Below, in pieces: positions 21,986 through 40,601 of a stretch of 64,000 bases of DNA. The notes beneath the pieces were generated by a model, which was not told where the DNA came from, searched no databases, and saw nothing but the letters and a program-made list of their open reading frames with translations. The stretch's first letter is position 1. Each line of letters starts with the position of its first letter. The translations under genes were made by a program, and so were the position numbers. The DNA is from Micromonospora sp. ATCC 39149 (lineage in GTDB: Bacteria; Actinomycetota; Actinomycetes; Mycobacteriales; Micromonosporaceae), in assembly GCF_000158815.1 (NCBI RefSeq), contig NZ_GG657738.1:5934478-5998477 (forward strand). The letters run 5' to 3'.

Positions 21986-22021
21986 ACGGAACCCTCCACG
22001 ATTCCGGGGGATTGACATGCG

Positions 22022-22567
22022 ATGATCTCTGGCATGCCCCACACTGCACCCCCGTCCGTACGTTTCGTCCGCCTGGGCCCGGCCGTCTTCGAGGCTCTAC
22101 TCACCGGCGACCTGGCCACCGCCCGGACGCTGACCGGTGTTCCGCTCTCGGAATGGTTCCTCTCCGACGAGGTCGACTGGCTGTGGCGGATGCGACTACT
22201 CCAGATCGCCGCCGACCCGTCCGCCGAAGACTGGGTCGTCCGCGCGGCGGTAACGGTGCCCGACGGCGTGGTGGTGGGCGCCGGTGGCTTCCACGGACCG
22301 CCCGACGCCGCCGGCATGGTGGAGATGGGATACGGCACGGACCCGGCGTTCCGCCGGCGTGGTTACGCTCGGGCCATGGTGGCCGCGCTGCTGGAGTGGG
22401 CGGCCGCGGAGCCGTCGGCGATCACGGTCCGGGCTAGTATCCGCCCGGACAACGAAGCCTCACTGGCCACCATCGCCGGTTTCGGTTTCATTCACGTCGG
22501 CGAGCAGCGGGACGAGCAGGACGACACTGAATACCTTTTCGAGCGTCCGGCCCGATCCGCCGGTTGA
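22022..22567 (+). CDS. GNAT-family N-acetyltransferase
   Basis: A 181-residue acetyltransferase from ATG 22022 (an in-frame ATG at 22034 is an alternative). The acetyl-CoA-binding motif A is GYGTDPAFRRRGYARAMV, preceded by the beta-4 strand VVVGAGGFHG and followed by IRPDNEASLATIAGFGF, all typical of GNAT enzymes of the RimJ-like type. The substrate, a small-molecule or protein amine, is not predictable. It stands alone among IS remnants and its frame is intact. Confidence 0.85.
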   Translation: MISGMPHTAPPSVRFVRLGPAVFEALLTGDLATARTLTGVPLSEWFLSDEVDWLWRMRLLQIAADPSAEDWVVRAAVTVPDGVVVGAGGFHGPPDAAGMVEMGYGTDPAFRRRGYARAMVAALLEWAAAEPSAITVRASIRPDNEASLATIAGFGFIHVGEQRDEQDDTEYLFERPARSAG

Positions 22568-22742
22568 TTCGCCCGACCGCCGCCGGGAGCGAAAGTCCTG
22601 GCGGCGGTCGCTCCGCCACCCGCCACGGTCGCACGGACGGCGGGGCCGGACCGGGCGCGGTGTCGGCGACTGACCCGGGCGGTCAGCTGGTAGGCCGGCG
22701 GTGGCCCCAGGCAGCACTGCCCAAAAGTTAACGACCTGGGGC

Positions 22743-23567: not shown

Positions 23568-23768
23568 ATGAATGTCCTACTTCGTCGCTTGTCAATGGCG
23601 CTCTTCTGCGCCGCGGTCATCGTGGCCGGCACCGGCGGTGCGGCCGCGCGCGACAGCCAAGACCGTGGCACCGCCGATGTGCCGGGGAACCCGCGGATCA
23701 GTGCGCACGGGTGTGCACACTGCCCGAAGAAGGCAGCTCTTCCCGAAACTTCACCGTCGCAATCTTGA
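23568..23768 (+). CDS. Small secreted protein (putative)
   Basis: A 66-residue ORF with GGAG 7-8 bases before ATG 23568. The N-terminus is a clear signal peptide: Arg-containing start, then LSMALFCAAVIVAGTGGAA with a possible Ala-Arg cleavage site. The short mature part has one CAHC pair. The last 24 codons overlap, on the opposite strand, the 3' end of the SARP gene, so the original C-terminus may have been replaced. Local base composition is less GC-rich than the neighbours. No family is recognised. Confidence 0.4.
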   Translation: MNVLLRRLSMALFCAAVIVAGTGGAAARDSQDRGTADVPGNPRISAHGCAHCPKKAALPETSPSQS

Positions 23769-27223: not shown

Positions 27224-27463
27224 AGTTGATCGTGAAGTCGGAGGCCCCTGGTTCCTGAAAAAGTGAGCTTCAGGATGAAGGTGGCGTCCGGCATGCAGTT
27301 GTGCGAGGTGCGGCGGCAAGTGACTTTACTGGTCAGCCCTCCAGGTATGGCTCCAACGAAGTCCAGCCGGAAGTCCAGCGACTTGTCCAACCGCATCCCG
27401 ACCATGGGAACCAGGGCATACACATCGCTGCGATCGGTGGAGATCCAGCAAGAGGGGAGTTTC

Positions 27464-28146
27464 ATGTTCGACGTCGTCTGCGTCGGGTTCGGGCCCGCGA
27501 ACATCGCGCTCGCCGTAGCGCTCGACGAGATCTGGCCCGCGGCGCGTGTCAATTTCGTAAAACGGGATCCGGCTCCGTGCTGGCAGCGGCGATGATGCCC
27601 GACGGCGCCGACATCCAGAACCATCCCGTCAGCGACCTTGTGACGCCGCGCAACCCGCGGAGCCGCTACACGTTCGTCAACTTCCTGCACGAGCAGGGGC
27701 GGCTCTCCAAGTACCTGAACCTGCCGGTGGACCGTCCGCTGCGCAAGGAGTACGCCCGCTACATCCAGTGGGTCGCGGAGACCGTGCCCGCCGACGTCGA
27801 CTATGGCCGGAACGTCACGGCGATCCGGTTCGCCGGGAGCGGGGCGGAGGTGCGTACCACCGACGGCGGCTCCTACCTGGGCCGGCCCGTCGTCGTCGCG
27901 CCGGGCCGCAGCCCGTACCTGCCGACGGTCTTCGACGGAGTGCCGTTCCCGCGGGCCGTCCACACGTCGCGCTTCCTGCCCGGCATCGCCGACTGGACCG
28001 GGACTGGGCCGGCACGCTGGCGGCCGTGGGCGCCAGCCAGAGCGCCATCGAGGTGATGCTCGACCTGTCCACGCGGTTCCCGGCCGCTCGTATCGTCAAC
28101 GTGATGTCGGGCTACGGATACCGGTTCAAGGACACCAGCCCTCCCA
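27464..28146 (+). pseudogene. L-ornithine/L-lysine N-monooxygenase, N-terminal half
   Basis: Starts at ATG 27464 after GAGGGGAG. The FAD-binding motif is VVCVGFGPANIALAVALDE. After a frameshift near 27588 comes the substrate-loop region DIQNHPVSDLVTPRNPRSRY and TFVNFLHEQGRLSKYLNLP; after a second shift near 28010, the NADPH-binding motif AAVGASQSAIEVMLDL, then SGYGYRFKDTSP, where homology stops. These are the classic IucD/SidA/PvdA features. The C-terminal half is at 21065-21472 on the opposite strand. With two frameshifts and the split, the gene is not functional as drawn. Confidence 0.8.
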
Positions 28147-28306
28147 CCGGCGCTATCTGATCTCCGTCGCTGCGGCCGTCGTTGTTGTCGTGGCCGCCGC
28201 CGTCCTGCTGGTTCCCGTCGGGCTGCCGGTTCCCATCGGTGCCGGCATGCCTGCATAGCGTGATCGCTCCAGGCTCCTGCCACGGGGGCTCGATCATTTC
28301 AACGAG

Positions 28307-29368
28307 ATGGGAGTAGTTGGTTTGTCCACCACTATCGATGTTTCTGTCCGCGCCAATGCGATCGGATCTGATCCGATGGCTGTTGTCGAAGAAATCTCCG
28401 CCTGGCTGTCCACACCCGCTGAGGAGGTCGACCGGGAGCTTGCTGGCGAGCTCGACCGGTTGCGACTCGCTGTTTCGGTGATGAATGCCGACGCCGCTGC
28501 CGGCGACCGGCACGCCCACTACTGCCAGCAACTCCTTCTGGCCAGGATCTACCAGCTGACCATGCAGATCCCCGAACAGCCGACCGCTGAGGGATCGGTG
28601 GTGGTGCACGAGGTGATGCGGCTGCTCGAGACCGCGACGCTGGCCGCCGAGGACGGCCGGATCGAGCCGGGCATCCTGGAGCAGGCGCCGGCCCAGCCGA
28701 AGGCGTACCTGTCCTGGCTCAAAAGGACCGCCCGCGCACACCGGGTGTTCAAGCACCCGTACTACCAGGACTTCATCAAAGACCACGCGACGGTCGACGA
28801 CCTGCGCAATTACGTGATGCAGGAGTCGGTGGTCGACGGCCGCTTCGACGACCTGCTGGCGATGATGCAGGTGGGCACCAGCGGCGGCGCCAAGATGGAG
28901 ATTGCCACCAACTTCTGGGACGAGATGGGCAATGGCAACCAGGCCGAGGTCCACACCCACCTGTTCAACGAGATATTCGAGGTATTCGAGATCACCTCGG
29001 CGGAACTGGAGACCGGGCTCAGCGCGAACGCCCTGCTCAACGGCAACCTGGCGGTTCTACTGAGCCGCTACCGCAACTTCTATGCCGAGGCCGTCGGCTT
29101 CCTCGGGATGACCGAGTGGTTGGTGCCCGACCGATTCGTGCAGGTGGTCAAGGCATGGGAGCGGCTCGGCCTGCCCGATGCCGGCATCGTCTACCACCGG
29201 CTGCACATCACGATCGACGCGCAGCACGCCGCCGGCTGGTTCCACAACGTGGTGATCCCCGCCGCGTCCTCGCCCGCCATGCGCCGCGGCATAACGCGCG
29301 GCGCCCTGTGGCGGCTGAACTCCTCGTGCCGCTATCTCGACGAGCGAATGCCCAACACCTACCGCTGA
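28307..29368 (+). CDS. Haem-oxygenase-like di-iron oxidase (HDO), first gene of the NRPS operon
   Basis: A 353-residue protein of the iron-containing redox enzyme family. The C-terminal metal motif His-x3-Asp-x2-His is explicit (HITIDAQH, residues 300-307). Upstream carboxylate candidates are E173 in MQESVVDGRFDDLL, E199 and E206 in KMEIATNFWDEMGNGN. The His usually found ten residues after the first Glu is not there; Asp 181/182 lie nearby. HDO enzymes use O2 to N-oxygenate amines (SznF, HrmI, BelK) or to cleave amino-acid or fatty-acid carbon chains (BesC, UndA). The next gene is a 2OG oxygenase 47 bp away, a pairing seen for HrmI/HrmJ and BelK/BelL. The start could be TTG 28322, which has GGGAG before it. 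Confidence 0.85.
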   Translation: MGVVGLSTTIDVSVRANAIGSDPMAVVEEISAWLSTPAEEVDRELAGELDRLRLAVSVMNADAAAGDRHAHYCQQLLLARIYQLTMQIPEQPTAEGSVVVHEVMRLLETATLAAEDGRIEPGILEQAPAQPKAYLSWLKRTARAHRVFKHPYYQDFIKDHATVDDLRNYVMQESVVDGRFDDLLAMMQVGTSGGAKMEIATNFWDEMGNGNQAEVHTHLFNEIFEVFEITSAELETGLSANALLNGNLAVLLSRYRNFYAEAVGFLGMTEWLVPDRFVQVVKAWERLGLPDAGIVYHRLHITIDAQHAAGWFHNVVIPAASSPAMRRGITRGALWRLNSSCRYLDERMPNTYR

Positions 29369-29415
29369 CCGCCGCGCACATCCTGCCAAGAACACACAGG
29401 AAGGCAAGACGTTCC

Positions 29416-30117
29416 ATGGCACTGAACCACCAGCACTTCACCGTGATCGACCTGCCGGCGCCACCGGTGGACGTCCTGCACAGCTACGACCGCTGCCCGG
29501 TCGACGACTACATGGGTAATGGCACCCGCTACAAGCGGTTCTCCCAGTACCGGATGCATTGGGAGCAGGACCAGGGTTGGAACTTCGAGCTGCTGCCGCA
29601 CCGGGACTACACCACGTTCACCAAGTTCAACCCGGTGGCCGGCGGTATCCGTCGGGTCTACCAACCGATCGAGGCGGACTTCACCAAGATGATCGCCGTC
29701 GGCGCCGCAGCCTTCCCCCTGGACACCAGCGAGAGCTGGCAGATCAACGTGCACCAGAACCGGACGCGGGCCGAGGCTGATCGGGTGGGCCCGCTGACCC
29801 CGGAGGGCGTGCACCACGACGGCCACGAGTTCGTGATGATCGCCGTGCTGAGGCGCCACAACGTCGCCGGCGCCGAGACCCGGCTGTGGTACGACGGCGC
29901 CGAAGCGCCGTTCTGGAGCGGCACCCTCGAGGCCGGGCAGGCGGTGCTGCTGGACGACCGGGCGATCGCGCACGACGTGACCGACGTCGAATCCGCGGAT
30001 GGCGGCCCGGCGCACCGCGACATCGTGATCGTGGCGTTCTCCCGCTGGCAGGAGAGGTGGTACGGCGACGAGCACGACCGTGCGGCGTTGACCGAGCCCG
30101 GGGTCACTGGCAGCTGA
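29416..30117 (+). CDS. 2-oxoglutarate/Fe(II)-dependent oxygenase (2OG-Fe_Oxy_2 type)
   Basis: A 233-residue oxygenase, ATG 29416 with AGGAAGG upstream. The iron site is visible: His133-x-Asp135 in GVHHDGHEFVMIAVL and the distal His186 in DDRAIAHDVTDV; Arg201 in HRDIVIVAFSRW is the expected 2-oxoglutarate contact. Size and motif spacing fit the family containing L-isoleucine 4-hydroxylase and related free-amino-acid oxygenases. In this operon it probably acts on the product of the HDO enzyme; by analogy with BelL/HrmJ, ring closure of a nitro-amino acid is possible, simple hydroxylation the more conservative reading. The gap to the DapF-like gene is 62 bp. Confidence 0.88.
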   Translation: MALNHQHFTVIDLPAPPVDVLHSYDRCPVDDYMGNGTRYKRFSQYRMHWEQDQGWNFELLPHRDYTTFTKFNPVAGGIRRVYQPIEADFTKMIAVGAAAFPLDTSESWQINVHQNRTRAEADRVGPLTPEGVHHDGHEFVMIAVLRRHNVAGAETRLWYDGAEAPFWSGTLEAGQAVLLDDRAIAHDVTDVESADGGPAHRDIVIVAFSRWQERWYGDEHDRAALTEPGVTGS

Positions 30118-30179
30118 GCATTGTGGGTCCCGCCAGCGCCGTCCTTAGTACACGGTGCCGCCGGCTGGGCCCGCCCGTG

Positions 30180-31115
30180 ATGGGGATTGACGAGATGACT
30201 CACTTCACCAAATACCAGGCCCTTGGTAACGACTATGTGGTGATCGACCCGAGGGACGTCGCCTTCGAGCCGACCGGACAGGACGCCCTACTGTTGTGCG
30301 ACCGGAATTTCGGGATCGGCGCTGACGGGGTGCTCTACGGCCCGATCGGCCCGGTGCATGCGAGCCGACCAGTGCAGCTGCGGATCTTCAACTCTGACGG
30401 CAGCGAGTGCGAGAAGAGCGGCAACGGCATCCGGATATTCGCCCTGCACGTGGCCGCGCGGCACCTGCCCGGAGTACGGGAGTTCACCGTGCGCACCTTG
30501 TCCGGCGACTCGTCGGTGCGCATCGTCGACCAGCCGGCCGGCGTCGTCAGCGTCGGCATGGGCGAGCCGTGTTTCGAGGCCGCAGCGGTGCCGATGCTCG
30601 GCATCACCGGGCTCGCCGTCGAGCAACCGCTGCTCGTCGACGGCCGGCAGCTGACGGTGACCGCCCTCAACCTGGGCAACCCGCACGCCGTGGTGCTCAC
30701 TGAGCACCCGACCCGCGAGCTTGCCTGCGCGCTCGGACCCTTGATCGCCGAGCACGAGCGCTTCCCGACGAGGACCAACGTTCAGTTCCTGCGGGTGCTG
30801 GACCGCCGGACGATCCAGATTGAGGTCTGGGAGCGCGGGGCCGGCTACACGCTGGCCTCGGGCAGCAGCGGCTGCGCGGCGACCGCGGTGGCGCACCGAC
30901 TCGGCCAGGTCGACACCGGCGCCGAGATCACCGTGCGGATGGCCGGCGGGGAGATCGGCGTGACCGTGGCACCGGACGGCACGGTGACCATGACCGGCAG
31001 CGCCGAGCACGTGCTGAGCGGCACGCTGGCTGCCGCGCTAGTCGCCCGGCTCGGCAACCACGCCGGTCAAGACGCCGCGGTACCGCACTCTGAGCCCGCG
31101 GCGGTGCAGGCATGA
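30180..31115 (+). CDS. Diaminopimelate-epimerase homologue with both catalytic Cys replaced by Ser
   Basis: A 311-residue DapF-fold protein with the ALGNDYVVID start, FGIGADGVL, and the two catalytic loops. In DapF these read xxCGNGxR and ACGSGxxA; here they are CEKSGNGIR (Ser80) and LASGSSGCAA (Ser227), so both cysteines that act as acid and base are Ser. A Cys lies five residues after Ser227. The remaining motifs, including RIFNSDGSE, TALNLGNPHAVVL and IEVWERGAGYT, are well kept, so the fold and substrate carboxylate pocket should be intact. It is probably a cluster-specific isomerase, or a related enzyme such as a lyase, rather than the housekeeping lysine gene. ATG 30195 is another possible start. 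Its stop overlaps the next start (ATGA). Confidence 0.85.
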   Translation: MGIDEMTHFTKYQALGNDYVVIDPRDVAFEPTGQDALLLCDRNFGIGADGVLYGPIGPVHASRPVQLRIFNSDGSECEKSGNGIRIFALHVAARHLPGVREFTVRTLSGDSSVRIVDQPAGVVSVGMGEPCFEAAAVPMLGITGLAVEQPLLVDGRQLTVTALNLGNPHAVVLTEHPTRELACALGPLIAEHERFPTRTNVQFLRVLDRRTIQIEVWERGAGYTLASGSSGCAATAVAHRLGQVDTGAEITVRMAGGEIGVTVAPDGTVTMTGSAEHVLSGTLAAALVARLGNHAGQDAAVPHSEPAAVQA

Positions 31116-32254
31116 GCGCCGGGATCAGCACCGAGTACCCGATGCGGCGGTGGGTGTTCGAGGACGCCGCCGGCCGGTACGACATCGACCTCGGCGACAG
31201 CAACGTGCAGTGCCGGCAACTGGCGTCGCTCGTCGTCCCGGCCGACATCGAGCTGAACTACGGCATGGACCGTGGAACTCAGCGGCTCCGCGAGCTGATC
31301 GCCGAGCAGTACGGCGACCGGGCCGACTCGGTTACGGTGACGCACGGGGCGCAGGAGGCGCTGTACCTCCTGTACAACGTGCTGCTGCGGCCGGGCGACC
31401 AGGTGATCACCTTCCGGCCGGGCTGGCCGCAGTCCTGGGCCGTGCCCGCCCTGCTGTCCGCCCAGGTGGACGTGCTCGACCTGAGCGACGATTTCACCAT
31501 CGACATGGACGCGGTGCGGGCCGCAGCCCGCCCGAACCTGCGGTTGGTGGTGGTGAACACACCGTGTAACCCGACCGGGAGGCGTGCCGGGCAGCACGAG
31601 CTGGCCGCCCTCGCCGACCTGGTCGGCGGGACCGGCGGGTACCTGCTGCTGGACGAGGAGTACTCGCTGGACCTGGCCTCCTCGGCCGCGGTTGGCAACG
31701 ACCGGGTGCTCTCGGTTTCCAGCCTGTCCAAGGTCTACGGCCTGCCCGGGCTGCGGGTGGGCTGGTTGTACGGGCCGCCTACCGTGGTCGCCGCGTGCGC
31801 CGACCGCAAGCACCTGACGTCCATCTCGAACTCGGTGCTTTGCGAGGCGCTGGCGTGCGAGGTGCTCGCCGATCGTCAGTTCTACGCCGCCGAGTACCAC
31901 CGGCTGACCGGCGGCGGCCTACGGCTGCTGCGCGACTGGGTGGCGCGGCACCCCGGCAAGCTGCATCTCTTGCCGCCCGACGGGACTCCGTTCGCATGGT
32001 TGGAGCTGACCACGGGGGAGTCTGCCTTGTCGTTCTGCCGCCGAGTGCTCGACGCCGGTGTGCTGCTGATGCCGGCCGAGACGCTCGGCGGCCAGGGCGG
32101 TGTGCGGCTGTGCTTCGCCCGTGAGCAGCGAGAACTGGCCGAAGGGCTGCGTCGCATCGACGCCGTACTGCAATCGGTTCCGGTCGACCGGGATCCCCCA
32201 ACCACGATGTCGCCGAACCACGGCCCGGGCCGAATGGAGTACGTGAGCAGATGA
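31112..32254 (+). CDS. PLP-dependent aminotransferase, class I/II
   Basis: A 380-residue fold-type I enzyme. The PLP lysine is K207 in VSSLSKVYGLPGLRVGW; other hallmarks are THGAQEALYLLYNVLLRPGD, VVVNTPCNPTGRR (the N-P-x-G motif) and LLLDEEYSLDL. C-terminal GGVRLCFARE carries the substrate-carboxylate Arg. The group contains ordinary aminotransferases as well as capreomycidine synthase, a PLP cyclase, so transamination is likely but not certain. Start and stop overlap both neighbours by ATGA, so it is translationally coupled to the DapF-like and NRPS genes. It probably interconverts an amino acid and its keto form in the pathway. Confidence 0.88.
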   Translation: MSAGISTEYPMRRWVFEDAAGRYDIDLGDSNVQCRQLASLVVPADIELNYGMDRGTQRLRELIAEQYGDRADSVTVTHGAQEALYLLYNVLLRPGDQVITFRPGWPQSWAVPALLSAQVDVLDLSDDFTIDMDAVRAAARPNLRLVVVNTPCNPTGRRAGQHELAALADLVGGTGGYLLLDEEYSLDLASSAAVGNDRVLSVSSLSKVYGLPGLRVGWLYGPPTVVAACADRKHLTSISNSVLCEALACEVLADRQFYAAEYHRLTGGGLRLLRDWVARHPGKLHLLPPDGTPFAWLELTTGESALSFCRRVLDAGVLLMPAETLGGQGGVRLCFAREQRELAEGLRRIDAVLQSVPVDRDPPTTMSPNHGPGRMEYVSR

Positions 32255-35200
32255 GAACCGCCAACGGAGCGCAGGCGCTCGACCGAGCCGTGGCCGCCGA
32301 GCCGACCCGGCTTCCGCTGTCCTTCGGACAGGAGCAGTTGTGGTTTCTTCGTCAGCTGAATCCCGATGAGATCGTCTACAACCTGGGATTCGCCTACCGG
32401 CTGCGCGGGGCGCTGGACGTCGGCGTGCTGCACGCCAGCCTCAGCCGGGTGGTGAACCGGCACGACATGCTGCGGTCCACGTTCGGCACCGAGGACGGCA
32501 GACCGTACCAGGTGATCGGCCCGTGCCGCGAGGTCGAGCTGATCGTGACCGACCTGAGCGACCTGCCCGCCGTTGAGCGCGAGCAGGCGCTCCAGGACGC
32601 ACTGGACGCCGAGAGCCGCACCCCGTTCGACCTGACACAGCCGCTGTACCGCTTCAAGCTCTGGCGGCTGGGCGGCGACGAGCACGTGTTCTGGTTCGGC
32701 TGGCACCACATCGTGATCGACGGCTGGTCGTCGGGTTCGGTGATCGCCGAGCTGACGGCCACGTACCGGGCGCTACTCGCCGGATCGGAGCCGGCGCTGC
32801 CGCAGCCGGTGATGAGCTACGCCGAGCACATCGCGCAGCAGCGCGAGCGGCTCTCCGGCGAGGCGCTGGAGGAGGAGCTGCGGTACTGGGAGCAGTCGCT
32901 CGCCGGGCTGCCGGTGCTGGAGCTGCCGACCGACCGGCTGCGCCCCACGGTACCCAGCGGTCGCGGCGACATGCTCAGCGTGGACTGCGACCCGGAGCTG
33001 CTGGCCAGCCTGCGCGAGCTCGCCCAGCAGCACGGTGTGTCGCTGTTCATGGTGCTCACCGCCGCGGTGACCATCGTGCTGGCGCGCTACTCCGGCGAGG
33101 AGGACATCCCGCTCGGGGTACCGATGCTGGGCCGGGTCGACCCGGACCTGGAGGACGTGGTCGGCATGTTCATCAACATGGTGGTTCAGCGCACCAGCAT
33201 GGCCGGCGACCCGACCTTCGCCGAGCTCTTGGAACGCATCGCCGACGCCAATCTCGATCTCTACGAACACCAGGAGATCCCGCTGGAGCTGGTAGTGCAG
33301 CGGGTACAGCCGATCCGCGACCCCAGCCGCAACCCGCTGTTCCAGGTGTCGGTGCAGGTTCTCGGCGACAGCATGTCCGGAGCGGGCTTCCAGCTACCCG
33401 GCATCGAGTCCGAGCAGGTGAAGCTCGGCTCGGTGCTGGCCATGTTCGACCTAGTGATCAACTTCTGGGAGTCGGCGGACAGCCTACGGCTGGACATCGG
33501 CTACGCCACCGACCTGTTCGACCGCTGGCGGATCGAAGGGCTGGCGGACCACATCCAGACCGTGCTCAGCGCGGTCGCTGCCGAGCCGTCCCTGCGGGTG
33601 TGGCAGGTGCCGATGCTGTCCGAGGCCGAGCGGTCCCGGATCCTGGCGGCCGGCCGCGGTGAGGTCGTCGAGTACCCCCACGACGCCGTGCACGTCACCG
33701 TCGCGGAGGTGGCTAGGGCCAAACCGGACACGGTGGCGCTGGTCTGCCGCAACGTCGAGATGACGTATGCCGAGTTGGACCGGCGGGCCGACCTGGTGGC
33801 CCGGCTGGTGCGCTCGCACGGCATCGAGCACGAGGACATCGTGGCCATCGCGATGGACCGCGACCTGGACGCACTGGTCGCCATGCTCGGCGTGCTCAAG
33901 GCCGGTGCGGCGTTCACCATGCTCGACCCGAGCCACCCGGCCAAGCGGCTGGATTACATGTTGCACGACACCGCCACCCGGCTGCTGCTCACCCGCACCA
34001 GGCACCTGCCGCAGCTCCCATCGGCCAGCGGCTGGGCCGTCGTGGCGCTGGACGCCGAGTGGGACTCTATCGAGGCCATCCCCGCCGGCCGGCCACTGGC
34101 CGAGTGGGCCACGGGCCGGTCGCTTGCCTACGTGCTCTACACCTCCGGCTCGACCGGCCAGCCCAAGGGCGTCATGGTTGATCACCGCGATCTCCAATGC
34201 TTCCTGCAGGCGTACCGGCGGACGTTCGACTTCGGCGCCGGTTCCCGGATGCTGCAGCTGCCCGCGCTGACCTTCGACATGTCCATCGGCGAAATCTTCA
34301 CCGGCCTCACCGTGGGCGCGACGTTGGTACTGGTGTCGCCGGAGGAAGGGCTGTCGCCGGACGCACTGAGCCGGCTGATGCGCGACCAGCGGGTGACCTA
34401 CGCCGGCCTGTCGCCGGCCATCCTGTCGGTGCTCGATCCCGACCCGTACCCCGACCTGCGCGGGGTGATGAGCGGTGCCGACGCGGTGCCCGCCGAGATG
34501 GTCAACAAGTGGAACCTGCCCGGCCGGATCTTCGTGGACCTCTACGGTCCGACCGAGGCCACGGTGGCCTGCACCGAGTACGTCTGCGAGCAGGTGGACT
34601 GGCGTACCCCGCCGCCGATCGGCCACCCGGAAGTGAACCGGCTGGTGTACGTCGTGGACCGGGCCGGCAACCTCACCCCGCCGGGCATCGCCGGTGAACT
34701 GCTGATCGGCGGCGACGACGGGCTGGCCCGCGGCTACCTCAACCAGCCTGAGCTGACCGCGGAGACGTTCATCCCCGACCCGTTCCGGCCGGCCGGCCGG
34801 GTGTACCGCAGCGGCGACCTGGTGCGCTGGCGGCCGGACCTGGAGCTGGAATTCCTCGGTCGCATCGATCACCAGGTGAAGCTGCGTGGGCTGCGCATCG
34901 AGCTCGGCGAGATCGAGTCGGCGCTGCAGCTGCACCCGCAGGTGCGGATGGCCGTGGTGCTGCTGCGGCCGGACTCGCGCGGCGAGAAGCAGTTGGTCGG
35001 CTACGTGACCGCCGAGTCCGAGCCGGCGCCGAGCATCGCCGAGCTCAAGCGGCACCTCGGCGAGCAGGTCCCGGAATACATGGTGCCCACGGCCTGGGTG
35101 GTGCTCGACGAGTTTCCGCTGACCACGGCCCGCAAGATCGACCGCAAGGCGCTACCGGCACCGGTGGAGCAGAACGAGCCGGCGGAGGCTGAGTTCGTAC

Positions 35201-35436
35201 CGCCGCAGACCCCGACCGAGGCCGGCGTCTGCGAGATCTTCGCCGAGGTGCTGGCGCTGCCGCGAGTGGGCCCGCTGGACAACTTCTTCGAACTCGGCGG
35301 CAACTCGCTGCAGGCCATGCGAGCGGTCAGCCGGATCAACAAGAAGTTCGGAATCAAGATCAATGTCCGGATGCTCTACGGCAGGTCAGCGGTGAACGCG
35401 ATCGCCGCCAAGATAGAGGAAATGATCGATGCCTGA
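32251..35436 (+). CDS. Nonribosomal peptide synthetase, single C-A-T module
   Basis: A 1,061-residue module. The condensation domain (residues ~10-440) has intact HHIVIDG at 152-158. The adenylation domain (~475-960) has YTSGSTGQPKG, FDMSIGEIF, YGPTEATVAC, YRSGDLVRW and GRIDHQVKLRGLRIELGEIE. The carrier domain has Ser1019 in ELGGNSLQA for the phosphopantetheine arm. By-eye alignment to GrsA gives a specificity code of about D-M-G-G-M-G-L-V-A-K, which matches no standard code I can recall and fits an unusual amino acid. A C domain at the front needs a donor that is not encoded here: another carrier protein elsewhere, or a free acyl donor. There is no internal thioesterase; the next gene supplies one. 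Confidence 0.93.
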   Translation: MRTANGAQALDRAVAAEPTRLPLSFGQEQLWFLRQLNPDEIVYNLGFAYRLRGALDVGVLHASLSRVVNRHDMLRSTFGTEDGRPYQVIGPCREVELIVTDLSDLPAVEREQALQDALDAESRTPFDLTQPLYRFKLWRLGGDEHVFWFGWHHIVIDGWSSGSVIAELTATYRALLAGSEPALPQPVMSYAEHIAQQRERLSGEALEEELRYWEQSLAGLPVLELPTDRLRPTVPSGRGDMLSVDCDPELLASLRELAQQHGVSLFMVLTAAVTIVLARYSGEEDIPLGVPMLGRVDPDLEDVVGMFINMVVQRTSMAGDPTFAELLERIADANLDLYEHQEIPLELVVQRVQPIRDPSRNPLFQVSVQVLGDSMSGAGFQLPGIESEQVKLGSVLAMFDLVINFWESADSLRLDIGYATDLFDRWRIEGLADHIQTVLSAVAAEPSLRVWQVPMLSEAERSRILAAGRGEVVEYPHDAVHVTVAEVARAKPDTVALVCRNVEMTYAELDRRADLVARLVRSHGIEHEDIVAIAMDRDLDALVAMLGVLKAGAAFTMLDPSHPAKRLDYMLHDTATRLLLTRTRHLPQLPSASGWAVVALDAEWDSIEAIPAGRPLAEWATGRSLAYVLYTSGSTGQPKGVMVDHRDLQCFLQAYRRTFDFGAGSRMLQLPALTFDMSIGEIFTGLTVGATLVLVSPEEGLSPDALSRLMRDQRVTYAGLSPAILSVLDPDPYPDLRGVMSGADAVPAEMVNKWNLPGRIFVDLYGPTEATVACTEYVCEQVDWRTPPPIGHPEVNRLVYVVDRAGNLTPPGIAGELLIGGDDGLARGYLNQPELTAETFIPDPFRPAGRVYRSGDLVRWRPDLELEFLGRIDHQVKLRGLRIELGEIESALQLHPQVRMAVVLLRPDSRGEKQLVGYVTAESEPAPSIAELKRHLGEQVPEYMVPTAWVVLDEFPLTTARKIDRKALPAPVEQNEPAEAEFVPPQTPTEAGVCEIFAEVLALPRVGPLDNFFELGGNSLQAMRAVSRINKKFGIKINVRMLYGRSAVNAIAAKIEEMIDA

Positions 35437-36259
35437 CTCGCTGCCGAACACGGTCGTAGCGATGCGGGAGACGGGTACGCGCACGCCGCTGTTCTGCGTG
35501 CACCCCGTTTCCGGCTCGGCGTACTCCTACCTCGGGCTGGCCGGGTTGCTGGGCGACGACCAGCCGGTGTACGGCTTCGAAGCGCCCGGCTACGACGACG
35601 ATCGCCCGCCCGCCCGCACCCTGAGGGAGTTGTCCGAGTACTACGTGTCGCTGCTATGCACGCACTGGCCCGGCCGGCCGGTGACCTTGCTCGGCTGGTC
35701 GTTCGGCGGGGTGGTGGCCTACGACATGGCGCAGCAGCTGGTCGCGGCAGGGGTCGCCGTGCCGGCGCTCGTGCTGGTCGACGCCGATGTGCCGTATCGG
35801 GCGCCGCTGCCGCCGGAGAAGGCGATGCTGCTGAAGTTCCTGCACGATCTGACGGCGGTGGCACATACCTCGACCGACGCCGCGGCCTCGTCGACCCCCT
35901 TGGCCGGCGAGCTCGACGCGATAGTGGGGCCGCAACCCGCGGACGCCGACCCGGCGGCGGTCTTCGACGCGATCGAATGCGCGGCGATCCTGCCCGAGGA
36001 GGTGGACGCCGAGATGCTCCTGCAGCGCTACCGCATCTTCCGGGCGCACGTGGCCGCGCTGTTCGACTTCGAGGTGCGCACGCCGTATCACGGGCCGGTG
36101 ACCCTTATCAGGGCCGCCAAGTCACCCGATGATCAGATGCGTTGGGATCGGGTGGCACCGGACCTGCGCAAGTACACCCTCGAGGGCGACCACCATTCCA
36201 TCTGGACCGGGAACGGCCTGTCAACCATCGCCGGCATTGTCGCGGGCCTGCAGCGATGA
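35429..36259 (+). CDS. Stand-alone thioesterase (alpha/beta hydrolase)
   Basis: A 276-residue thioesterase whose start overlaps the NRPS stop by 8 bases. The nucleophile is Ser91 in LLGWSFGGVVAYDMA; Asp118 in LVLVDADVP and His255/256 in EGDHHSIW complete the triad. LFCVHPVSGSAYSYLGLAGL at the N-terminus is the oxyanion region. The sequence is closer to the terminal type I thioesterase domains of NRPSs than to short type II editing enzymes, so it may release the product from the C-A-T module in trans. Its stop overlaps the MFS gene start (ATGA). Confidence 0.9.
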   Translation: MPDSLPNTVVAMRETGTRTPLFCVHPVSGSAYSYLGLAGLLGDDQPVYGFEAPGYDDDRPPARTLRELSEYYVSLLCTHWPGRPVTLLGWSFGGVVAYDMAQQLVAAGVAVPALVLVDADVPYRAPLPPEKAMLLKFLHDLTAVAHTSTDAAASSTPLAGELDAIVGPQPADADPAAVFDAIECAAILPEEVDAEMLLQRYRIFRAHVAALFDFEVRTPYHGPVTLIRAAKSPDDQMRWDRVAPDLRKYTLEGDHHSIWTGNGLSTIAGIVAGLQR

Positions 36260-37578
36260 GCTCCACGCGGTCTCGTGGCGTGCTGTGGCGCAACCCGGAC
36301 TTTCTCAAGTTCTGGGCTGGCGAGACGCTGTCGCTTTACGGCACGCAGGTCACCACGCTGGCGCTGCCGCTGACCGCGATGCTGGTCTTCGATGCCGGTC
36401 CCGAGCAGGTCGGGTTCCTGCGATTCATGCAGCTGGCACCGTACCCGGCCTTCGCGCTGCTGTTCGGCGTGTGGGTGGACCGGGTGCGGCGGCGGCCGTT
36501 GATGCTCGGCGCCAATTCGGTGCGGGCGGTGCTCATCGGGCTGGTGCCGGTGCTGGCCGGGATGGACAGGCTCACGCAGCCGGTGCTGCTGGCGCTGGCG
36601 TTCGGCATCGGCGTGGCGTCGGTGCTGTTCGACGTCAGCTGGATGTCATACCTGCCGGGCCTGCTCCGCGACAAGAAGTACCTGGTGGAGGCCAACTCCA
36701 AGCTGTCGATCACCGCCAGTTCCGCAGATGCTGCCGGGCCCGGCCTGGCCGGCGTGCTGATCAGTGCGCTCACCGCGCCGGTGGCGATGGTTGTCGACGC
36801 GGCGAGCTATCTGGTCTCGGTGGTGTTGCTGGCCGCCATCCCCACCCGGGAGCCGGCGCCCTCATCGGCCGCGGTCCGGCGACATCTGCTGGCCGAACTG
36901 GCCGACGGCCTGCGGTGGGTGTTCGGTAACAGCTACCTGCGGTCGATCGCCTTCGTCGGCGCCTTCTGCAACTTCTTCACCATGGCTACGTCGACGATGT
37001 TCATCGTCTATGCGGTGCGCGATGGCGGCCTGTCCCCGGCGCAATTGGGCGTCGTCTTCTCGCTCGGCGCGGTCGGCGGGCTGCTCGGCTCCCTAGTGTC
37101 CGGCCGGCTGCTCGCCCACTACACGCCCGGCCGGGTCTACTTCTGGTCGCTGGCCGCGACGTTCATCGGCCCGGTGCTGATCCCACTGGCCGCCGGGCCA
37201 CACTGGCTGGTTTTCGGTCTGTTCGTGGCTTCGTTCCTCATCGCCTACGGCGGGCTCGCGGTGTCCAACGTGCTGATCGTGAGCCTTCGGCAGACGGTGA
37301 CGCCGCCGCACCTGATGGGCCGGATGAACGCGGCCATTCGCACCTTGCTGTTCGGCGGCGGCGCTCTCGGCGGCCCGGTGAGCGGCCTGCTGGCCGGCGC
37401 CGTCGGCCTGCGCCCCGCGTTGTGGACCATCGGCGCCGCCGCGGTGCTGATGCTGCTGCCGGTGCTGCTGTCCCCGGTCAGCCGACTGGCGGCGATGCCG
37501 GAAACCCGTTCCAAGGCACCACTCAATCCGATCGATCCGATCCCGAGCGTACGAGGGAGTAACACCGAAAATGGTTAA
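36256..37578 (+). CDS. MFS transporter, probable product exporter
   Basis: A 440-residue major-facilitator protein; I take ATG 36256, which overlaps the thioesterase stop, instead of an earlier in-frame ATG. It has about 12 hydrophobic segments and the loop 2-3 motif VWVDRVRRRPLMLGANSVRA typical of the enterobactin-exporter-like (EntS/MFS_3) group; the N-terminus LWRNPDFLKFWAGETLSLYG also fits. Export of the NRPS product and self-protection is the likely role. The next gene overlaps its stop by 8 bases. Confidence 0.9.
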   Translation: MSSTRSRGVLWRNPDFLKFWAGETLSLYGTQVTTLALPLTAMLVFDAGPEQVGFLRFMQLAPYPAFALLFGVWVDRVRRRPLMLGANSVRAVLIGLVPVLAGMDRLTQPVLLALAFGIGVASVLFDVSWMSYLPGLLRDKKYLVEANSKLSITASSADAAGPGLAGVLISALTAPVAMVVDAASYLVSVVLLAAIPTREPAPSSAAVRRHLLAELADGLRWVFGNSYLRSIAFVGAFCNFFTMATSTMFIVYAVRDGGLSPAQLGVVFSLGAVGGLLGSLVSGRLLAHYTPGRVYFWSLAATFIGPVLIPLAAGPHWLVFGLFVASFLIAYGGLAVSNVLIVSLRQTVTPPHLMGRMNAAIRTLLFGGGALGGPVSGLLAGAVGLRPALWTIGAAAVLMLLPVLLSPVSRLAAMPETRSKAPLNPIDPIPSVRGSNTENG

Positions 37579-39307
37579 ACGAGGACGGGTGCTCGCCGCA
37601 GCACTATCAGTGGTGTCCGGGCTGGCGATGGCAGGCCCGGCACCGGCCGGGGCGGCACCGGCCGGGGCGGCACCCACCACCGGGCCGGTGGCCTACACTG
37701 TGCTGCTCGCCGAAGATGGTCGGCATGATGCTGCACTGGCCGCCATCCGCGCAGCTCAGGGCACAGTGCTGCGTGAGAACCGCGCGCTCGGGCTGGTCGT
37801 GGCGGAGAGCTCGGCCGCCGATTTTGCCGAGCGCGTAGTGGTACCGGGGGTGCTCGGTGCGGCCCGCAGCCGGGCACTCAGCCGCAGCGGGGGCAGCGTC
37901 GGCCGCGACCTCGGCGTCGGCGCCACGGTCGCCGACGTGACCGGCTACAGCCCAGCCGGTCCGTCCCGAGCCGGTGCGGTCACGGCCGCGGTTGGCATGG
38001 ACCCGCTGGACGCCAAGCTCTGGGGCCTGCGGATGGTGCGTGCCGACAAGGCCCGCGAGCGTCAGCCGGGCGACCACCGGGTACGGGTCGGTGTGATCGA
38101 CTCCGGGATCGACGCCACCCACCGTGACCTGGCCACGAACGTCGACCTGGCCGCGTCGCGCAACTTCGTGGCCGACATCCCGAACGACGTGAACGGCGTG
38201 GTGATCGACGGGCCGTGCGAGTTCGCCGGCTGTGTGGACCCGCCCGGGCACGACGACTACGGCCACGGCACCCACGTCGCCGGAACGATCGCTGCCGCCG
38301 CCAACGGGTCCGGCACCTCCGGCGTGGCGCCCGGTGTCACGCTCGTGGACATCAGGGCCACCCAGGACAGCGGCTGGACTTTCCTGCAGCCTTTCCTCGA
38401 CGCCCTGACCTACGGCGCGGACATCGGGCTCAACGTGATCAACCTGCCGTTCTACATCGACCCGTGGCTCTACAACTGCCCGGACAACCCCGCCGACACG
38501 CCCGCGCAACAGCTCGAACAGCGCATCACGATCGAGGCGGTAAACCGCGCGCTTGATTACGCGCACCGCAAGGGCGTCACCCTGATTTCGCCGATCGGCT
38601 TCGCCCACGACGACCTCGGGCACCCCAATCCGGACACGCTCAGCCCGACCTTCCCGGCCAACTCTGCCTACACCCGGCAGATCGACGGCGCCAGCTGTGC
38701 GGCCATGCCCATCGAAGGGCGCCACGTGATCGGCGTCAGCGGCCTCGGGCCGTCGGAGGGCAAAGCCGACTACTCCAACTACGGTCTCCCCGAGGTCGAG
38801 CTCGGCGGCCCCGGCGGCTTCCGCAAAGACGGGCTGGGCACCCCTTCATTCGATGCCAGGGAAAATCAGATCCTGTCGACGTACTCCCGCGCCGCAGCCA
38901 CCGGCAAGGGCTGGCTGACTCCGGAGGGCGACATCACTCCGCTCGGCGATGCGCAGGGGATGCTCAAAGATTGCACCCAGGACGGCACCTGCTCGTTCTT
39001 CCGCTGGGCCGAGAGCACCAGCCGGGCCGCCCCACATGTCTCCGGCGCGGCCGCCCTGGTGATCAGCCAGTATGGCATCAAAAACCGGGGTGGTGGCCGG
39101 ATCAGCATGAACCCGGCCAGCGTGCGGCACGTCCTGCTGACCAGCGCCCGCCGGCACCCTTGCCCGACACCGCGCCTGGTGTCCTACGCCGGCATCGGCC
39201 GTCCGCCAGCGTACGACGCCTACTGTGAAGGCACCGAGTGGCACAACGGCTTCTACGGCTACGGCATCGTCGACGCATATGCCGCAGTCACACGTCGGCA
39301 CCCCTAA
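37571..39307 (+). CDS. Secreted S8 (subtilisin-like) serine peptidase
   Basis: A 578-residue preproprotein: signal peptide in residues 1-30 (VLAAALSVVSGLAMAGPAPA), a short inhibitor-like propeptide (YTVLLAEDGRHDAALAAIRA), then the S8 catalytic domain. The triad is Asp177 in VGVIDSGIDATH, His232 in YGHGTHVAGTIAAA and Ser484 in ESTSRAAPHVSGAAA. Two features are odd: the nucleophile motif is STS instead of GTS, and the oxyanion-hole Asn block, normally AAGN, reads SPIGFAHDD with no Asn at that place. The gene is coupled to the MFS gene, so it belongs to the operon. A leader-removing, product-activating or resistance role is possible; none is proved. Confidence 0.85.
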   Translation: MVKRGRVLAAALSVVSGLAMAGPAPAGAAPAGAAPTTGPVAYTVLLAEDGRHDAALAAIRAAQGTVLRENRALGLVVAESSAADFAERVVVPGVLGAARSRALSRSGGSVGRDLGVGATVADVTGYSPAGPSRAGAVTAAVGMDPLDAKLWGLRMVRADKARERQPGDHRVRVGVIDSGIDATHRDLATNVDLAASRNFVADIPNDVNGVVIDGPCEFAGCVDPPGHDDYGHGTHVAGTIAAAANGSGTSGVAPGVTLVDIRATQDSGWTFLQPFLDALTYGADIGLNVINLPFYIDPWLYNCPDNPADTPAQQLEQRITIEAVNRALDYAHRKGVTLISPIGFAHDDLGHPNPDTLSPTFPANSAYTRQIDGASCAAMPIEGRHVIGVSGLGPSEGKADYSNYGLPEVELGGPGGFRKDGLGTPSFDARENQILSTYSRAAATGKGWLTPEGDITPLGDAQGMLKDCTQDGTCSFFRWAESTSRAAPHVSGAAALVISQYGIKNRGGGRISMNPASVRHVLLTSARRHPCPTPRLVSYAGIGRPPAYDAYCEGTEWHNGFYGYGIVDAYAAVTRRHP

Positions 39308-39358: not shown

Positions 39359-39414
39359 ACAGCCCTTGATCGATGATCTTCCTTTCTGGGGAAGAAAACC
39401 GAATCAAGGGCTGT
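39359..39414. repeat. 12-bp inverted repeat at the left end of a transposase remnant
   Basis: ACAGCCCTTGAT (39359-39370) and its exact complement ATCAAGGGCTGT (39403-39414) flank a 32-base spacer just before the transposase start. This is probably the left end of the insertion sequence that follows; it also lies 51 bases after the end of the NRPS operon. Confidence 0.6.
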
Positions 39415-39417
39415 CTG

Positions 39418-39838
39418 ATGATCAGTGTGCCTGACGTGGATCGGGCTGGTGCTCTCGAGCGTCTGGTCGGGTTCCGGGCCGAGTTCCATCGCTGTCTGAC
39501 CGCTCGCGGGGACGCGTTGTTCGAGCTGGTGGACGCGGTGTTGTGCGGGGACACAGCGGTGCGTTCACTGGCGGAGCTATCGCTGGCCGGGCAGCATCGC
39601 CGGGGTCACGGCTCGTTGTATGCCGGGCTGAACCGCGGCCGCATCGACGTCGACCGGCTGCGCACCGCGCTGTCCGTAGTGCCGGTGCCGCGAGCCGCGG
39701 ACGGCAGGATCGTGCTTGCGGTGGACGTGACGTGCTGGCTGCGCCCGGAAGCACACACCAGCCCGCAGCGGGTGTTGTGTCACACCTACGGACGTACCAA
39801 GGACACCCACATCGGTGTCCCGGGCTGGCCCTACTCGA
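39418..39838 (+). pseudogene. DDE-type transposase, N-terminal fragment
   Basis: From ATG 39418 the sequence matches the N-terminal third of a widespread actinomycete putative transposase family: DVDRAGALERLVGFRAEFHR, CLTARGDALFELVDAVLCGD, RRGHGSLYAGLNRGRIDVDR and LAVDVTCWLRPEAHTSPQRV with the first Asp, then a GWPYS motif. Homology stops there and the frame runs antisense into the antiporter gene. The element is truncated by the junction at about 39836 and is inactive. Confidence 0.75.
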
Positions 39839-40601
39839 GTTCAACCCGGCCACTGTGGACGCCCTCGGTGAGCAGCAGCCCGAGCATGAACGCCGCGCCG
39901 ATCAGGGCCGCCTGCACGGCCCGGCCGAGCTGACGGCTGATGTTGGGCCGGATGAACAGGCCTGCCACGGCCAGGCCGAGCAACGTGAACTGCCACACCG
40001 CCAGCCCGATGAGAGCGACCGCGAGCACAGCCATCGCCTTGGGATAGCGGCGCAGCCAGTACCAGCCTAGGAACGCCACCGCGATGAACACCACGTTCGC
40101 GGCCAGGCTGGTGAGGTAGGACCCGGCAGTGCCTGCCTGCAACTGCGGCACGCCCTGCGCGGTGGCGACGATCGCCGCGGCGTAGACCGACAGCAGCACC
40201 GTGATGGGGTCGTCGAACGACGACCAGGCGGCCAAGATCGACTTGGCCCGCGCCGACATGCGCGGATTGCCGACGATCGCCGCGACGGCAAGGGGGTCGA
40301 TCTGCGCCACCGCGACACCGAGCACGAGGTACAACGGGTTCTGGAACGCCAGTGCCAGGCTCACGCCGATGAGCGCGGCCTTGGCAACCACGCCGATCGT
40401 CACCGCGGCGACGATGGTGCGCCAGTCCTTGCGGGCGTGGGGCAAATCGATGCCGAACGTGCTGCCGTACAGGCCGACAGCCAGCAGAATCGTGGTCAGC
40501 AGCAGGTAAGTCGGTGCGGACTCCAGCCCTGATGCCCCGGTCGCACAGGCGACCAGCAGGCCGAGGCCGGCCGGAATGATGAGCTTGCCCAACGCCAGCA
40601 C
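39831..40601 (-). CDS. Cation/proton antiporter family protein, probably truncated
   Basis: A 256-residue integral membrane protein from GTG 40601, with about eight hydrophobic segments. Typical features are LIIPAGLGLLVACATGASGL, LLTTILLAVGLYGSTFGIDL, AVAQIDPLAVAAIVGNPRMS and AWSSFDDPITVLLSVYAAAI; the paired Asp in SSFDDP resembles the ion site of monovalent cation/proton antiporters. The family is usually near 400 residues. The 3' end abuts the transposase fragment and the 5' end abuts another fragment, so the protein may lack its final helices. Confidence 0.6.
   Translation of the reverse strand: MLALGKLIIPAGLGLLVACATGASGLESAPTYLLLTTILLAVGLYGSTFGIDLPHARKDWRTIVAAVTIGVVAKAALIGVSLALAFQNPLYLVLGVAVAQIDPLAVAAIVGNPRMSARAKSILAAWSSFDDPITVLLSVYAAAIVATAQGVPQLQAGTAGSYLTSLAANVVFIAVAFLGWYWLRRYPKAMAVLAVALIGLAVWQFTLLGLAVAGLFIRPNISRQLGRAVQAALIGAAFMLGLLLTEGVHSGRVELE

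What the first reader, a model, noticed from the sequence alone, without database searches (positions are those of the whole stretch)
28307..39307. Compact NRPS operon pairing an HDO enzyme with a 2OG oxygenase: candidate nitro- or cyclopropyl-amino-acid peptide pathway
Eight genes in one direction, most overlapping by 4 or 8 bases: HDO, 2OG/Fe(II) oxygenase, DapF homologue, PLP aminotransferase, C-A-T NRPS, thioesterase, MFS exporter, S8 peptidase. Seen directly: H-x3-D-x2-H in the HDO protein, HxD...H in the oxygenase, and all NRPS core motifs. Established: BelK/HrmI (HDO) N-oxygenate lysine to 6-nitronorleucine and BelL/HrmJ (2OG oxygenases) close the nitrocyclopropane ring in belactosin and hormaomycin. 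Inferred: this pair may do related chemistry. The gene set does not match either known cluster, because the DapF homologue, single module and S8 peptidase are additional, so the product could be new.
Basis: partly seen in the sequence, partly recalled or inferred. Interest (0 to 1): 0.85.

Follow-up and report, generated by a model that had tools for sequence, protein, structure and literature searches.

The report
Nitrocyclopropane peptide operon with altered DapF
A compact, horizontally moving gene cluster carries the known three-gene cassette for a rare nitro-cyclopropane amino acid, and its third gene, usually labelled a lysine-pathway enzyme, has lost both of that enzyme's catalytic residues in every cassette copy aligned, so it probably does another job.

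Summary
The eight-gene operon is real (28307-39307). HDO, 2OG oxygenase and DapF homologue form the nitrocyclopropyl-alanine (Ncpa) cassette known from belactosin and hormaomycin: HDO is nearest HrmI in the PDB; the oxygenase is 73% identical to a solved enzyme that is probably ScBelL. HDO-oxygenase-DapF-PLP-(C-A-T) is a recurrent cluster family with one A-domain code and no nitro reductase seen, so a nitro peptide is likely. Actinokineospora has the same block at 93.5% DNA identity, ending at the same edges: recent transfer.

Unexpected: the cassette DapF has Ser at both catalytic Cys positions in 39 of 39 aligned cassette copies (37 distinct); 22 of 22 other DapFs have Cys/Cys. In 392 Streptomyces genomes it lies with the cyclopropanase (16 of 17 cassettes), never with the HDO alone (0 of 9). 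Lysine supply by DAP epimerisation is thus unlikely; 6-nitronorleucine has DAP's chain length with NO2 in the carboxylate's place, so I propose that the protein deprotonates or holds the nitro substrate for the cyclopropanase. Product and DapF role remain untested.

The parts
28307..29368 (+). HDO (haem-oxygenase-like dimetal oxygenase), predicted lysine N6-oxygenase giving 6-nitronorleucine (HrmI/BelK type)
   Evidence: Pfam PF14518; best PDB HrmI E 3.8e-68; E173 in 55 of 56, E206 and H216 in 56 of 56, H300, D304 and H307 in 55 of 56 aligned HDOs, one of them a gap
29416..30117 (+). Fe(II)/2OG oxygenase, predicted nitrocyclopropane synthase (BelL/HrmJ type)
   Evidence: PF10014; 8jms/9dq0 E ~1e-115, 73% identity; H133 in 44, D135 in 45 and H186 in 44 of 46 aligned rows
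30180..31115 (+). DapF homologue with Ser80 and Ser227 in place of both catalytic Cys and a new invariant Cys77 (residues counted from the ATG at 30180); BelM/HrmT type; predicted to act on 6-nitronorleucine or Ncpa
   Evidence: TIGR00652 217 bits; Ser/Ser in 39 of 39 cassette copies, Cys/Cys in 22 of 22 others; AF2 model pLDDT 91.3, best match DAP epimerase 9mro_A Z 37.6
31112..32254 (+). fold-type I PLP enzyme, distantly like GntC/VioD cyclodehydratases; predicted to modify the Ncpa-type amino acid
   Evidence: PF00155; GntC 209 and VioD 194 bits, below cut-offs 415 and 391; 55-60% identity to 12 of 13 aligned relatives, 92% to L022
32251..35436 (+). single-module NRPS, C-A-T, A-domain code DMGGMGLVA
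   Evidence: Pfam domains; code DMGGMGL(V/I)A in all type A clusters read
35429..36259 (+). stand-alone thioesterase (GWSFGG)
   Evidence: PF00975 5.1e-26; motif
36256..37578 (+). MFS exporter
   Evidence: PF07690 5.4e-39; TIGR00900 177 bits and the EntS model 92 bits, both below cut-off
37571..39307 (+). S8 peptidase with signal-like N-terminus, catalytic motifs intact; seen so far only in the window and L022
   Evidence: PF00082 1.2e-23; motifs; no match in L023, L031 or L203; most other type A loci end in or just after the TE and cannot tell
28237..39303 (+). extent of the transferred unit, shared as one block with Actinokineospora diospyrosa L022
   Evidence: single blastn match of 11,095 columns, 93.5%
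22022..22567 (+). GNAT acetyltransferase, possible accessory or self-protection gene; in L022 it lies directly downstream of the S8 gene

Best explanation
This is a compact NRPS cluster built on the nitrocyclopropane cassette. [quoted passage not shown] the 2OG oxygenase closes its C4 and C6 to give 3-(2-nitrocyclopropyl)alanine (Ncpa). Both steps are shown for relatives and inferred here. The DapF homologue keeps DapF's fold and most of its recognition of the non-reacting L-amino-acid end but has Ser at both acid/base Cys positions (shown), so it is probably not a DAP epimerase. Its most likely role (inferred) is to bind the nitro amino acid, whose chain length equals DAP's with NO2 in the reacting carboxylate's place, and to deprotonate C6, supplying the nitronate that the cyclopropanase needs. 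The PLP enzyme then modifies the Ncpa-type amino acid (inferred), the C-A-T module activates it through its family-wide A pocket, a donor from outside the cluster is joined, the TE releases a small nitro peptide and the MFS pump exports it. The S8 peptidase is secreted and trims the product or guards against it (weak inference). The unit moves horizontally between actinomycete families.
For: HDO: HrmI is the best PDB match; identity and ligand residues. Oxygenase. Trio equals belKLM/hrmIJT (PMC10764440, passages); since the oxygenase's near relative ScBelL takes 6-nitronorleucine, the HDO beside it should make that compound. Recurrent cluster family. No molybdopterin reductase of the family F5 in the type A stretches compared, so nitro probably retained. 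DapF: Ser/Ser in 39 of 39 cassette copies, Cys/Cys in 22 of 22 others; distal-end residues mostly kept; in Streptomyces it goes with the cyclopropanase (16 of 17) and not with HDO alone (0 of 9); also Ser/Ser in an Agrobacterium vitis plasmid cassette; DapF fold. PLP: kept in L131, where no NRPS match lies within 20 kb. Transfer.
Against: BelK/BelL and HrmI/HrmJ are reported to give Ncpa in vitro, so the DapF homologue is not strictly needed; the review says C6 deprotonation can occur without enzyme and that BelL itself speeds it. One cassette lacks DapF (L036/L128), though that genome has a second cassette with it. One distal-end residue (Asn of GNPH) is N in only 27 of 39 copies. No donor module for the C domain was found: the five short-type genomes searched hold many NRPSs, but none matched the Streptomyces A-T partner above 45% identity. 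HDO is only 45% identical to HrmI, and its clade in the tree holds no characterised enzyme that I could place. No assay or metabolite supports any step here.
Confidence: 0.66

Rival explanations
1. The DapF homologue is a cluster-linked DAP epimerase that raises L-lysine supply for the HDO, as suggested for BelM/HrmT.
For: Published suggestion in PMC10764440 (passages); the curated DapF model matches above its cut-off; such genes are annotated as dapF of lysine biosynthesis in two plasmid records.
Against: Both catalytic Cys are Ser in 39 of 39 copies, and single Cys-to-Ser changes greatly reduce turnover of the related HisR (PMC11602996, passages). Each of 19 cassette-bearing genomes has at least one separate Cys/Cys DapF. 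No Ser/Ser DapF in 9 of 9 HDO-only Streptomyces genomes, where lysine demand should be the same if their HDO uses lysine, which is not known.
Confidence: 0.1
2. The DapF homologue is a non-catalytic binder: it sequesters 6-nitronorleucine or Ncpa (whose nitronates should mimic DapF's carbanion intermediate and could poison the housekeeping DapF), or hands substrate from HDO to oxygenase.
For: Fold and most distal-end residues kept, catalytic pair replaced in all aligned copies. Sulfate or phosphate sits between the two catalytic positions in Cys-to-Ser mutants of HisR (PMC11602996, passages), so such a site can hold an oxyanion.
Against: S, S and a new C are strictly invariant, which looks like catalysis or tight recognition; not found where HDO alone might already make the nitro compound (0 of 9).
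Confidence: 0.27
3. The DapF homologue epimerises a carbon of Ncpa (the nitro-bearing ring carbon or C-alpha), setting the final stereochemistry after cyclisation.
For: DapF-fold enzymes include many epimerases; presence tracks the cyclopropanase.
Against: For belactosin and hormaomycin the ring stereochemistry made by the oxygenase matches the product (PMC10764440, passages).
Confidence: 0.15
4. The HDO and oxygenase act on another amino acid, or stop at hydroxylation, so no nitrocyclopropane is made.
For: HDO is only 45% identical to HrmI and HDOs vary in reaction (PMC13108848, passages). HDOs of the window's clade sit by a divergent PF10014 protein in L133 and L134.
Against: Oxygenase 73% identical to 8jms/9dq0, probably ScBelL, whose reaction is reported; the trio recurs, also in Agrobacterium.
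Confidence: 0.13

Closest known systems
Ncpa cassette belK-belL-belM (belactosin) / hrmI-hrmJ-hrmT (hormaomycin)
   Same: HDO, PF10014 oxygenase and DapF homologue in one cluster; HDO and oxygenase related to HrmI and to BelL-type enzymes. The DapF homologue on the hormaomycin-type contig G140:C20 (HDO 75% to HrmI, multi-module NRPS) is Ser/Ser as well. BelM itself was not seen.
   Different: Assembled with a PLP enzyme and a single C-A-T module plus TE, not ATP-grasp ligases or a long NRPS; no BelN-like nitro reductase found.
S. microflavus-type cluster (L024-L029, L033, L034), whose oxygenase in L025 is 96% identical to 8jms/9dq0
   Same: HDO-oxygenase-DapF-PLP-C-A-T in the same order, same A-domain code, TE.
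   Different: Those have an extra SHMT and a second A-T protein with code DMYNLGLIH; the window, L022, L023, L031 and L203 lack them, and the S8 peptidase was seen only in the window and L022.
Diaminopimelate epimerase DapF and its racemase cousins (DcsC, CntK, HisR)
   Same: Fold (best 9mro_A Z 37.6) and most substrate-holding residues.
   Different: Both catalytic Cys replaced by Ser; new invariant Cys; the Glu of GAGET is absent in 39 of 39 copies and present in 22 of 22 others.
GntC and VioD PLP cyclodehydratases
   Same: Best NCBIfam models for the PLP enzyme.
   Different: Scores about half the curated cut-offs; substrate unknown.

Membership tests
Ncpa cassette (BelKLM/HrmIJT) | HDO of the HrmI/BelK family with conserved metal-ligand residues | tested here: met
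   HrmI E 3.8e-68; residues; which residues are ligands is inferred; BelK not in hand
Ncpa cassette (BelKLM/HrmIJT) | adjacent PF10014 cyclopropanase with HxD...H | tested here: met
Ncpa cassette (BelKLM/HrmIJT) | DapF homologue in the cassette | tested here: met
Ncpa cassette (BelKLM/HrmIJT) | L-lysine to 6-nitronorleucine to Ncpa in vitro | not testable with these tools
   needs assay
Belactosin cluster | ATP-grasp peptide ligases and BelN-like nitro reductase | tested here: not met
   none among the eight genes or the ten flanking proteins scanned; no reductase-family F5 gene in window 18-45.5 kb
Hormaomycin cluster | multi-module NRPS assembly line beside the cassette | tested here: not met
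   single C-A-T module; compare L119
DAP epimerase (DapF) | two catalytic cysteines | tested here: not met
   Ser/Ser in the window and in 39 of 39 cassette copies
DAP epimerase (DapF) | DapF fold and residues holding the distal L-centre | tested here: met
   Z 37.6 to 9mro_A; N36, N90, N219, E237, R238 in 39 of 39, N186 in 27 of 39 (numbering 19 higher than in 'parts'); their role is recalled from DapF structures
L-isoleucine-4-hydroxylase | closest PF10014 relative is an Ile hydroxylase | tested here: not met
   E 0.11 against ~1e-115 for 8jms/9dq0
GntC / VioD | NCBIfam equivalog cut-off | tested here: not met
   209 of 415 and 194 of 391 bits

The most novel reading that the evidence does not exclude
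The BelM/HrmT-type DapF homologue is a new enzyme: a nitroalkane C-H deprotonase (nitronate synthase) evolved from DAP epimerase by exchanging both catalytic cysteines for serine. It holds 6-nitronorleucine as a DAP mimic, forms the C6 nitronate and feeds it to the Fe/2OG cyclopropanase; in this cluster family a PLP enzyme then reworks the nitrocyclopropane amino acid before one-module NRPS assembly.
Probability: 0.3. Interest if true: 0.8.

Novelty: new variant of a known kind. Interest (0 to 1): 0.6.

Why it matters
It places a little-studied cluster family in the small group of pathways that make nitrocyclopropane amino acids, with a probable nitro-peptide product. It also gives a clear, testable reason to doubt the usual annotation and the suggested lysine-supply role of the third cassette gene: a DapF whose two catalytic residues are replaced in all aligned cassette copies, in two phyla, and which goes with the cyclopropanase rather than with the HDO alone. 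If it does act on the nitro substrate, it explains why belM and hrmT are in their clusters and adds a new chemistry to the DapF fold.

Tried and rejected
Isoleucine hydroxylase reading of the oxygenase: rejected. DapF gene as something particular to this cluster: rejected. Lysine supply by the DapF homologue: judged unlikely, not excluded. FMO (lysine/ornithine N-monooxygenase-like) stretch upstream, about 27301-28258, as part of the pathway: rejected, it reads as a remnant in the window and in L021 and lies outside the part shared with L022. A second NRPS module elsewhere in five short-type genomes as the donor: not found by identity, not excluded. My working label 'belactosin-like' for L046/L048 did not survive a check: they carry enoyl-CoA hydratase and asparagine-synthase-like genes. 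So no stand-in for BelK or BelM is left, the window's HDO clade has no characterised member that I could place, and I lowered the main odds slightly. Stereochemistry from the BelL H136/HrmJ R136 position: the x of HxD is a candidate (H in the window and 9dq0, S in L119), but without BelL and HrmJ sequences the numbering cannot be fixed, so I make no claim. PDB 8jms/9dq0 as ScBelL is inferred from 96% identity to the S. microflavus protein and from the review, not read from a record. A-domain code positions were placed by motif from memory.

Literature: the open-library searches showed one paper naming BelM/HrmT, PMC10764440; one search lists 10 of 198 papers with either word and one search lists 30 of 950,802, so unlisted papers were not seen. 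Nothing listed concerns their catalytic residues. Main subscription papers are not in the library; PMC8810744, PMC13420876 and PMC11611017 were not held. Papers were seen as passages only.

Rows left out of counts: L049 DapF (171 aa; Ser at site 1, does not reach site 2) and L036 (no DapF). The 39 rows hold 37 distinct sequences (L033/L142 and L131/L139 identical). From the 16/17 against 0/9 table I left out HDO hits weaker than 4e-60 (G424, G258, G249; no DapF hit there either), oxygenase hits weaker than 1e-60 (G197 and G116:C2 at 42%, nine at about 1e-26 to 1e-28) and the two Cys/Cys DapF hits (G277, G323). Of the nine HDO-only places, G432's contig is 3,132 bases, G269's hit lies near a contig end and G180's surroundings were not looked at; the DapF search was genome-wide. 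The Fisher p of 3.2e-6 ignores shared ancestry.
Full report
OBSERVATION. Coordinates, overlaps and motifs were checked and each gene has the expected Pfam domain. Five of seven junctions overlap by 4 or 8 bases. The genus is Micromonospora: the congener G028 has the same 108,205-base contig and match as the record of Micromonospora inaquosa LB39.

THE UNIT. A genome-collection scan with the oxygenase gave 30 loci. Micromonospora sp. KC213 (L021) and Actinokineospora diospyrosa (L022; Pseudonocardiaceae against Micromonosporaceae) are nearly the same. In L022 one blastn match covers window 28237-39303 at 93.5% and stops there; a second match with a GNAT gene (window 22021-22610, 91%) lies directly after it in L022. 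So the eight genes are the transferred unit. A DDE_5 transposase fragment lies just downstream in the window (39373-39933).

CLUSTER FAMILY ('type A'). HDO-oxygenase-DapF-PLP-NRPS in that order recurs in L021-L029, L031, L033 and L034 and in another Micromonosporaceae genus (L203). L024-L029, L033 and L034 add an SHMT-family and an A-T protein (Pfam checked for L024). The window, L022, L023, L031 and L203 have one C-A-T module, TE and MFS; L021 ends inside the TE gene. The A-domain code DMGGMGL(V/I)A is the same in all type A loci read, against DMYNLGLIH for the second module. Other cassette types keep the trio with a molybdopterin reductase (14 loci's list, among them L030, L032, L037, L046), in several with an aldo/keto reductase, or with an ATP-grasp ligase (L121). 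Type A loci have no such reductase in the stretches compared, which suggests that the nitro group stays.

HDO AND OXYGENASE. HDO's best PDB match is HrmI (E 3.8e-68; 45% identity). In an unrooted tree of 56 HDOs the window lies in a large clade with the other type A and reductase-type cassettes; HrmI and the hormaomycin-type L119 (75% to HrmI) lie in a second; seven distant HDOs (26-35% to the window) form a third group. The oxygenase matches PDB 8jms/9dq0 (E ~1e-115; 73%), which are 96% identical to the S. microflavus protein of L025. PMC10764440 (passages) reports an X-ray structure of ScBelL from S. cavourensis, which makes (1'R,2'S)-Ncpa; I infer that these entries are ScBelL. The same passages state that BelK and HrmI turn L-lysine into 6-nitronorleucine, that BelL and HrmJ cyclise it, that C6 deprotonation is critical and that basic pH favours cyclisation. 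The window HDO's substrate is inferred from its partner.

DAPF HOMOLOGUE. The same review says that belM/hrmT may encode DAP epimerases that could supply lysine. The sequence argues against that here. The window protein has SGNG where DapF has CGNG, and ASGS where it has ACGT or ACGS. Of 41 cassette loci offered, 40 gave a DapF hit and 39 were long enough to align; all 39 (37 distinct) have Ser at both positions and an invariant Cys three residues before the first. All 22 non-cassette DapFs aligned have Cys/Cys: 20 from 19 cassette-bearing genomes and two others. Five further non-cassette hits in the class sample are Cys/Cys too. The two groups separate in the tree (support 0.998). The DapF homologue on the hormaomycin-type contig (L152) and an Agrobacterium vitis plasmid copy are also Ser/Ser. 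The model is confident (pLDDT 91.3; S80 and S227 each directly precede a helix) and has DapF's fold (9mro_A Z 37.6, rmsd 2.0, 273 aligned). PMC11602996 (passages) reports that single Cys-to-Ser changes in the related HisR greatly reduce turnover, and that a sulfate or phosphate sits between the two catalytic positions in those mutants.

CO-OCCURRENCE. In 392 Streptomyces genomes I compared HDO, DapF and oxygenase hits. Of 26 HDO places (E <= 4e-60), 17 have a BelL-type oxygenase within 1.1 kb; 16 of these 17 have a Ser/Ser DapF on the contig (15 within 1.8 kb, one at 41 kb). Of 9 HDO places without the oxygenase none has one, nor has any of those genomes. All 16 Ser/Ser DapFs share a contig with a cyclopropanase (residues). 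In class (394 genomes) and Micromonosporaceae (200 genomes) samples the Ser/Ser hits besides the window were L194, L195, L201 and L202; all have the oxygenase on the contig, L202's 13 kb away. L194 and L195 have the same coordinates as two Streptomyces hits and are not independent. So the DapF homologue tracks cyclopropanation. The exception is L036/L128, which has no DapF between oxygenase and reductase; its genome has another cassette with one. Whether the HDO-only enzymes use lysine is unknown.

MECHANISM. Chain lengths match: DAP is an L-amino acid with a CH(NH3+)COO- group at C6; 6-nitronorleucine has CH2NO2 at C6. A nitronate resembles the carbanion that DapF stabilises (general chemistry, recalled). 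The residues that hold DAP's other end are mostly kept (roles recalled). Hence my preferred role: bind 6-nitronorleucine and form its C6 nitronate for the oxygenase. Against it stand in vitro turnover without BelM/HrmT and deprotonation by BelL itself. Rivals are a non-catalytic binder or decoy, an Ncpa epimerase, and lysine supply.

LATER STEPS. The PLP enzyme resembles GntC and VioD most but at half their cut-offs. It is kept beside the trio in L131, where no NRPS match lies within the 20-kb stretch and an EamA transporter gene converges on it; this suggests, weakly, that it works on the Ncpa-type amino acid itself. Several genes of L131 were not annotated. The C domain's donor and the product are unknown.

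NOVELTY. The cassette is known; the cluster family is a variant whose product I could not find; the loss of both catalytic residues in the BelM/HrmT-type protein was not seen in the open-library listings, which do not include the main subscription papers.

Noticed in passing
window 27301-28258: Remnant of a lysine/ornithine N-monooxygenase (FMO) gene directly upstream of the HDO, spread over more than one frame; also broken in L021 and outside the unit shared with L022.
   Followed up: partly
window 23698-26562 (-): Large SARP/AfsR-type regulator beside the cluster, kept in L021 but not in the unit shared with L022; a SARP-type gene also lies by the L131 cassette.
   Followed up: partly
window 39373-39933: DDE_5 transposase fragment directly downstream of the cluster edge.
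   Followed up: no
L046 (4-17 kb) and L048: Micromonospora loci that join the trio and a molybdopterin reductase to enoyl-CoA hydratase and asparagine-synthase-like genes, a pairing that recalls carboxymethylproline/beta-lactam pathways (from memory).
   Followed up: partly
L133 and L134 (about 9.4-11.6 kb in L133), L135: HDO of the window's clade without BelL-type cyclopropanase or DapF; L133 and L134 have a divergent PF10014 protein (about 26%) beside it. Possibly a nitro or hydroxy amino acid branch.
   Followed up: partly
L120, L121: Trio plus PLP enzyme; in L121 followed by an ATP-grasp ligase: a likely dipeptide pathway on the same building block.
   Followed up: partly
L042-L044: Trio plus PLP enzyme and MFS; L042 also has carbamoyltransferase, PALP, ornithine cyclodeaminase, AurF-like and PIG-L genes. 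No NRPS match in L042 or L043; L044 has one about 6 kb upstream.
   Followed up: partly
L191, L193: Cassettes on an Agrobacterium vitis plasmid and a linear Streptomyces plasmid; their Ser/Ser DapF is annotated as dapF of lysine biosynthesis.
   Followed up: yes
window 5455-10062 and 10308-16313: Two very large ORFs in a stretch with marked AT and GC skew; not examined.
   Followed up: no
window 41165-44644 (-): NB-ARC/WD40 repeat protein.
   Followed up: no
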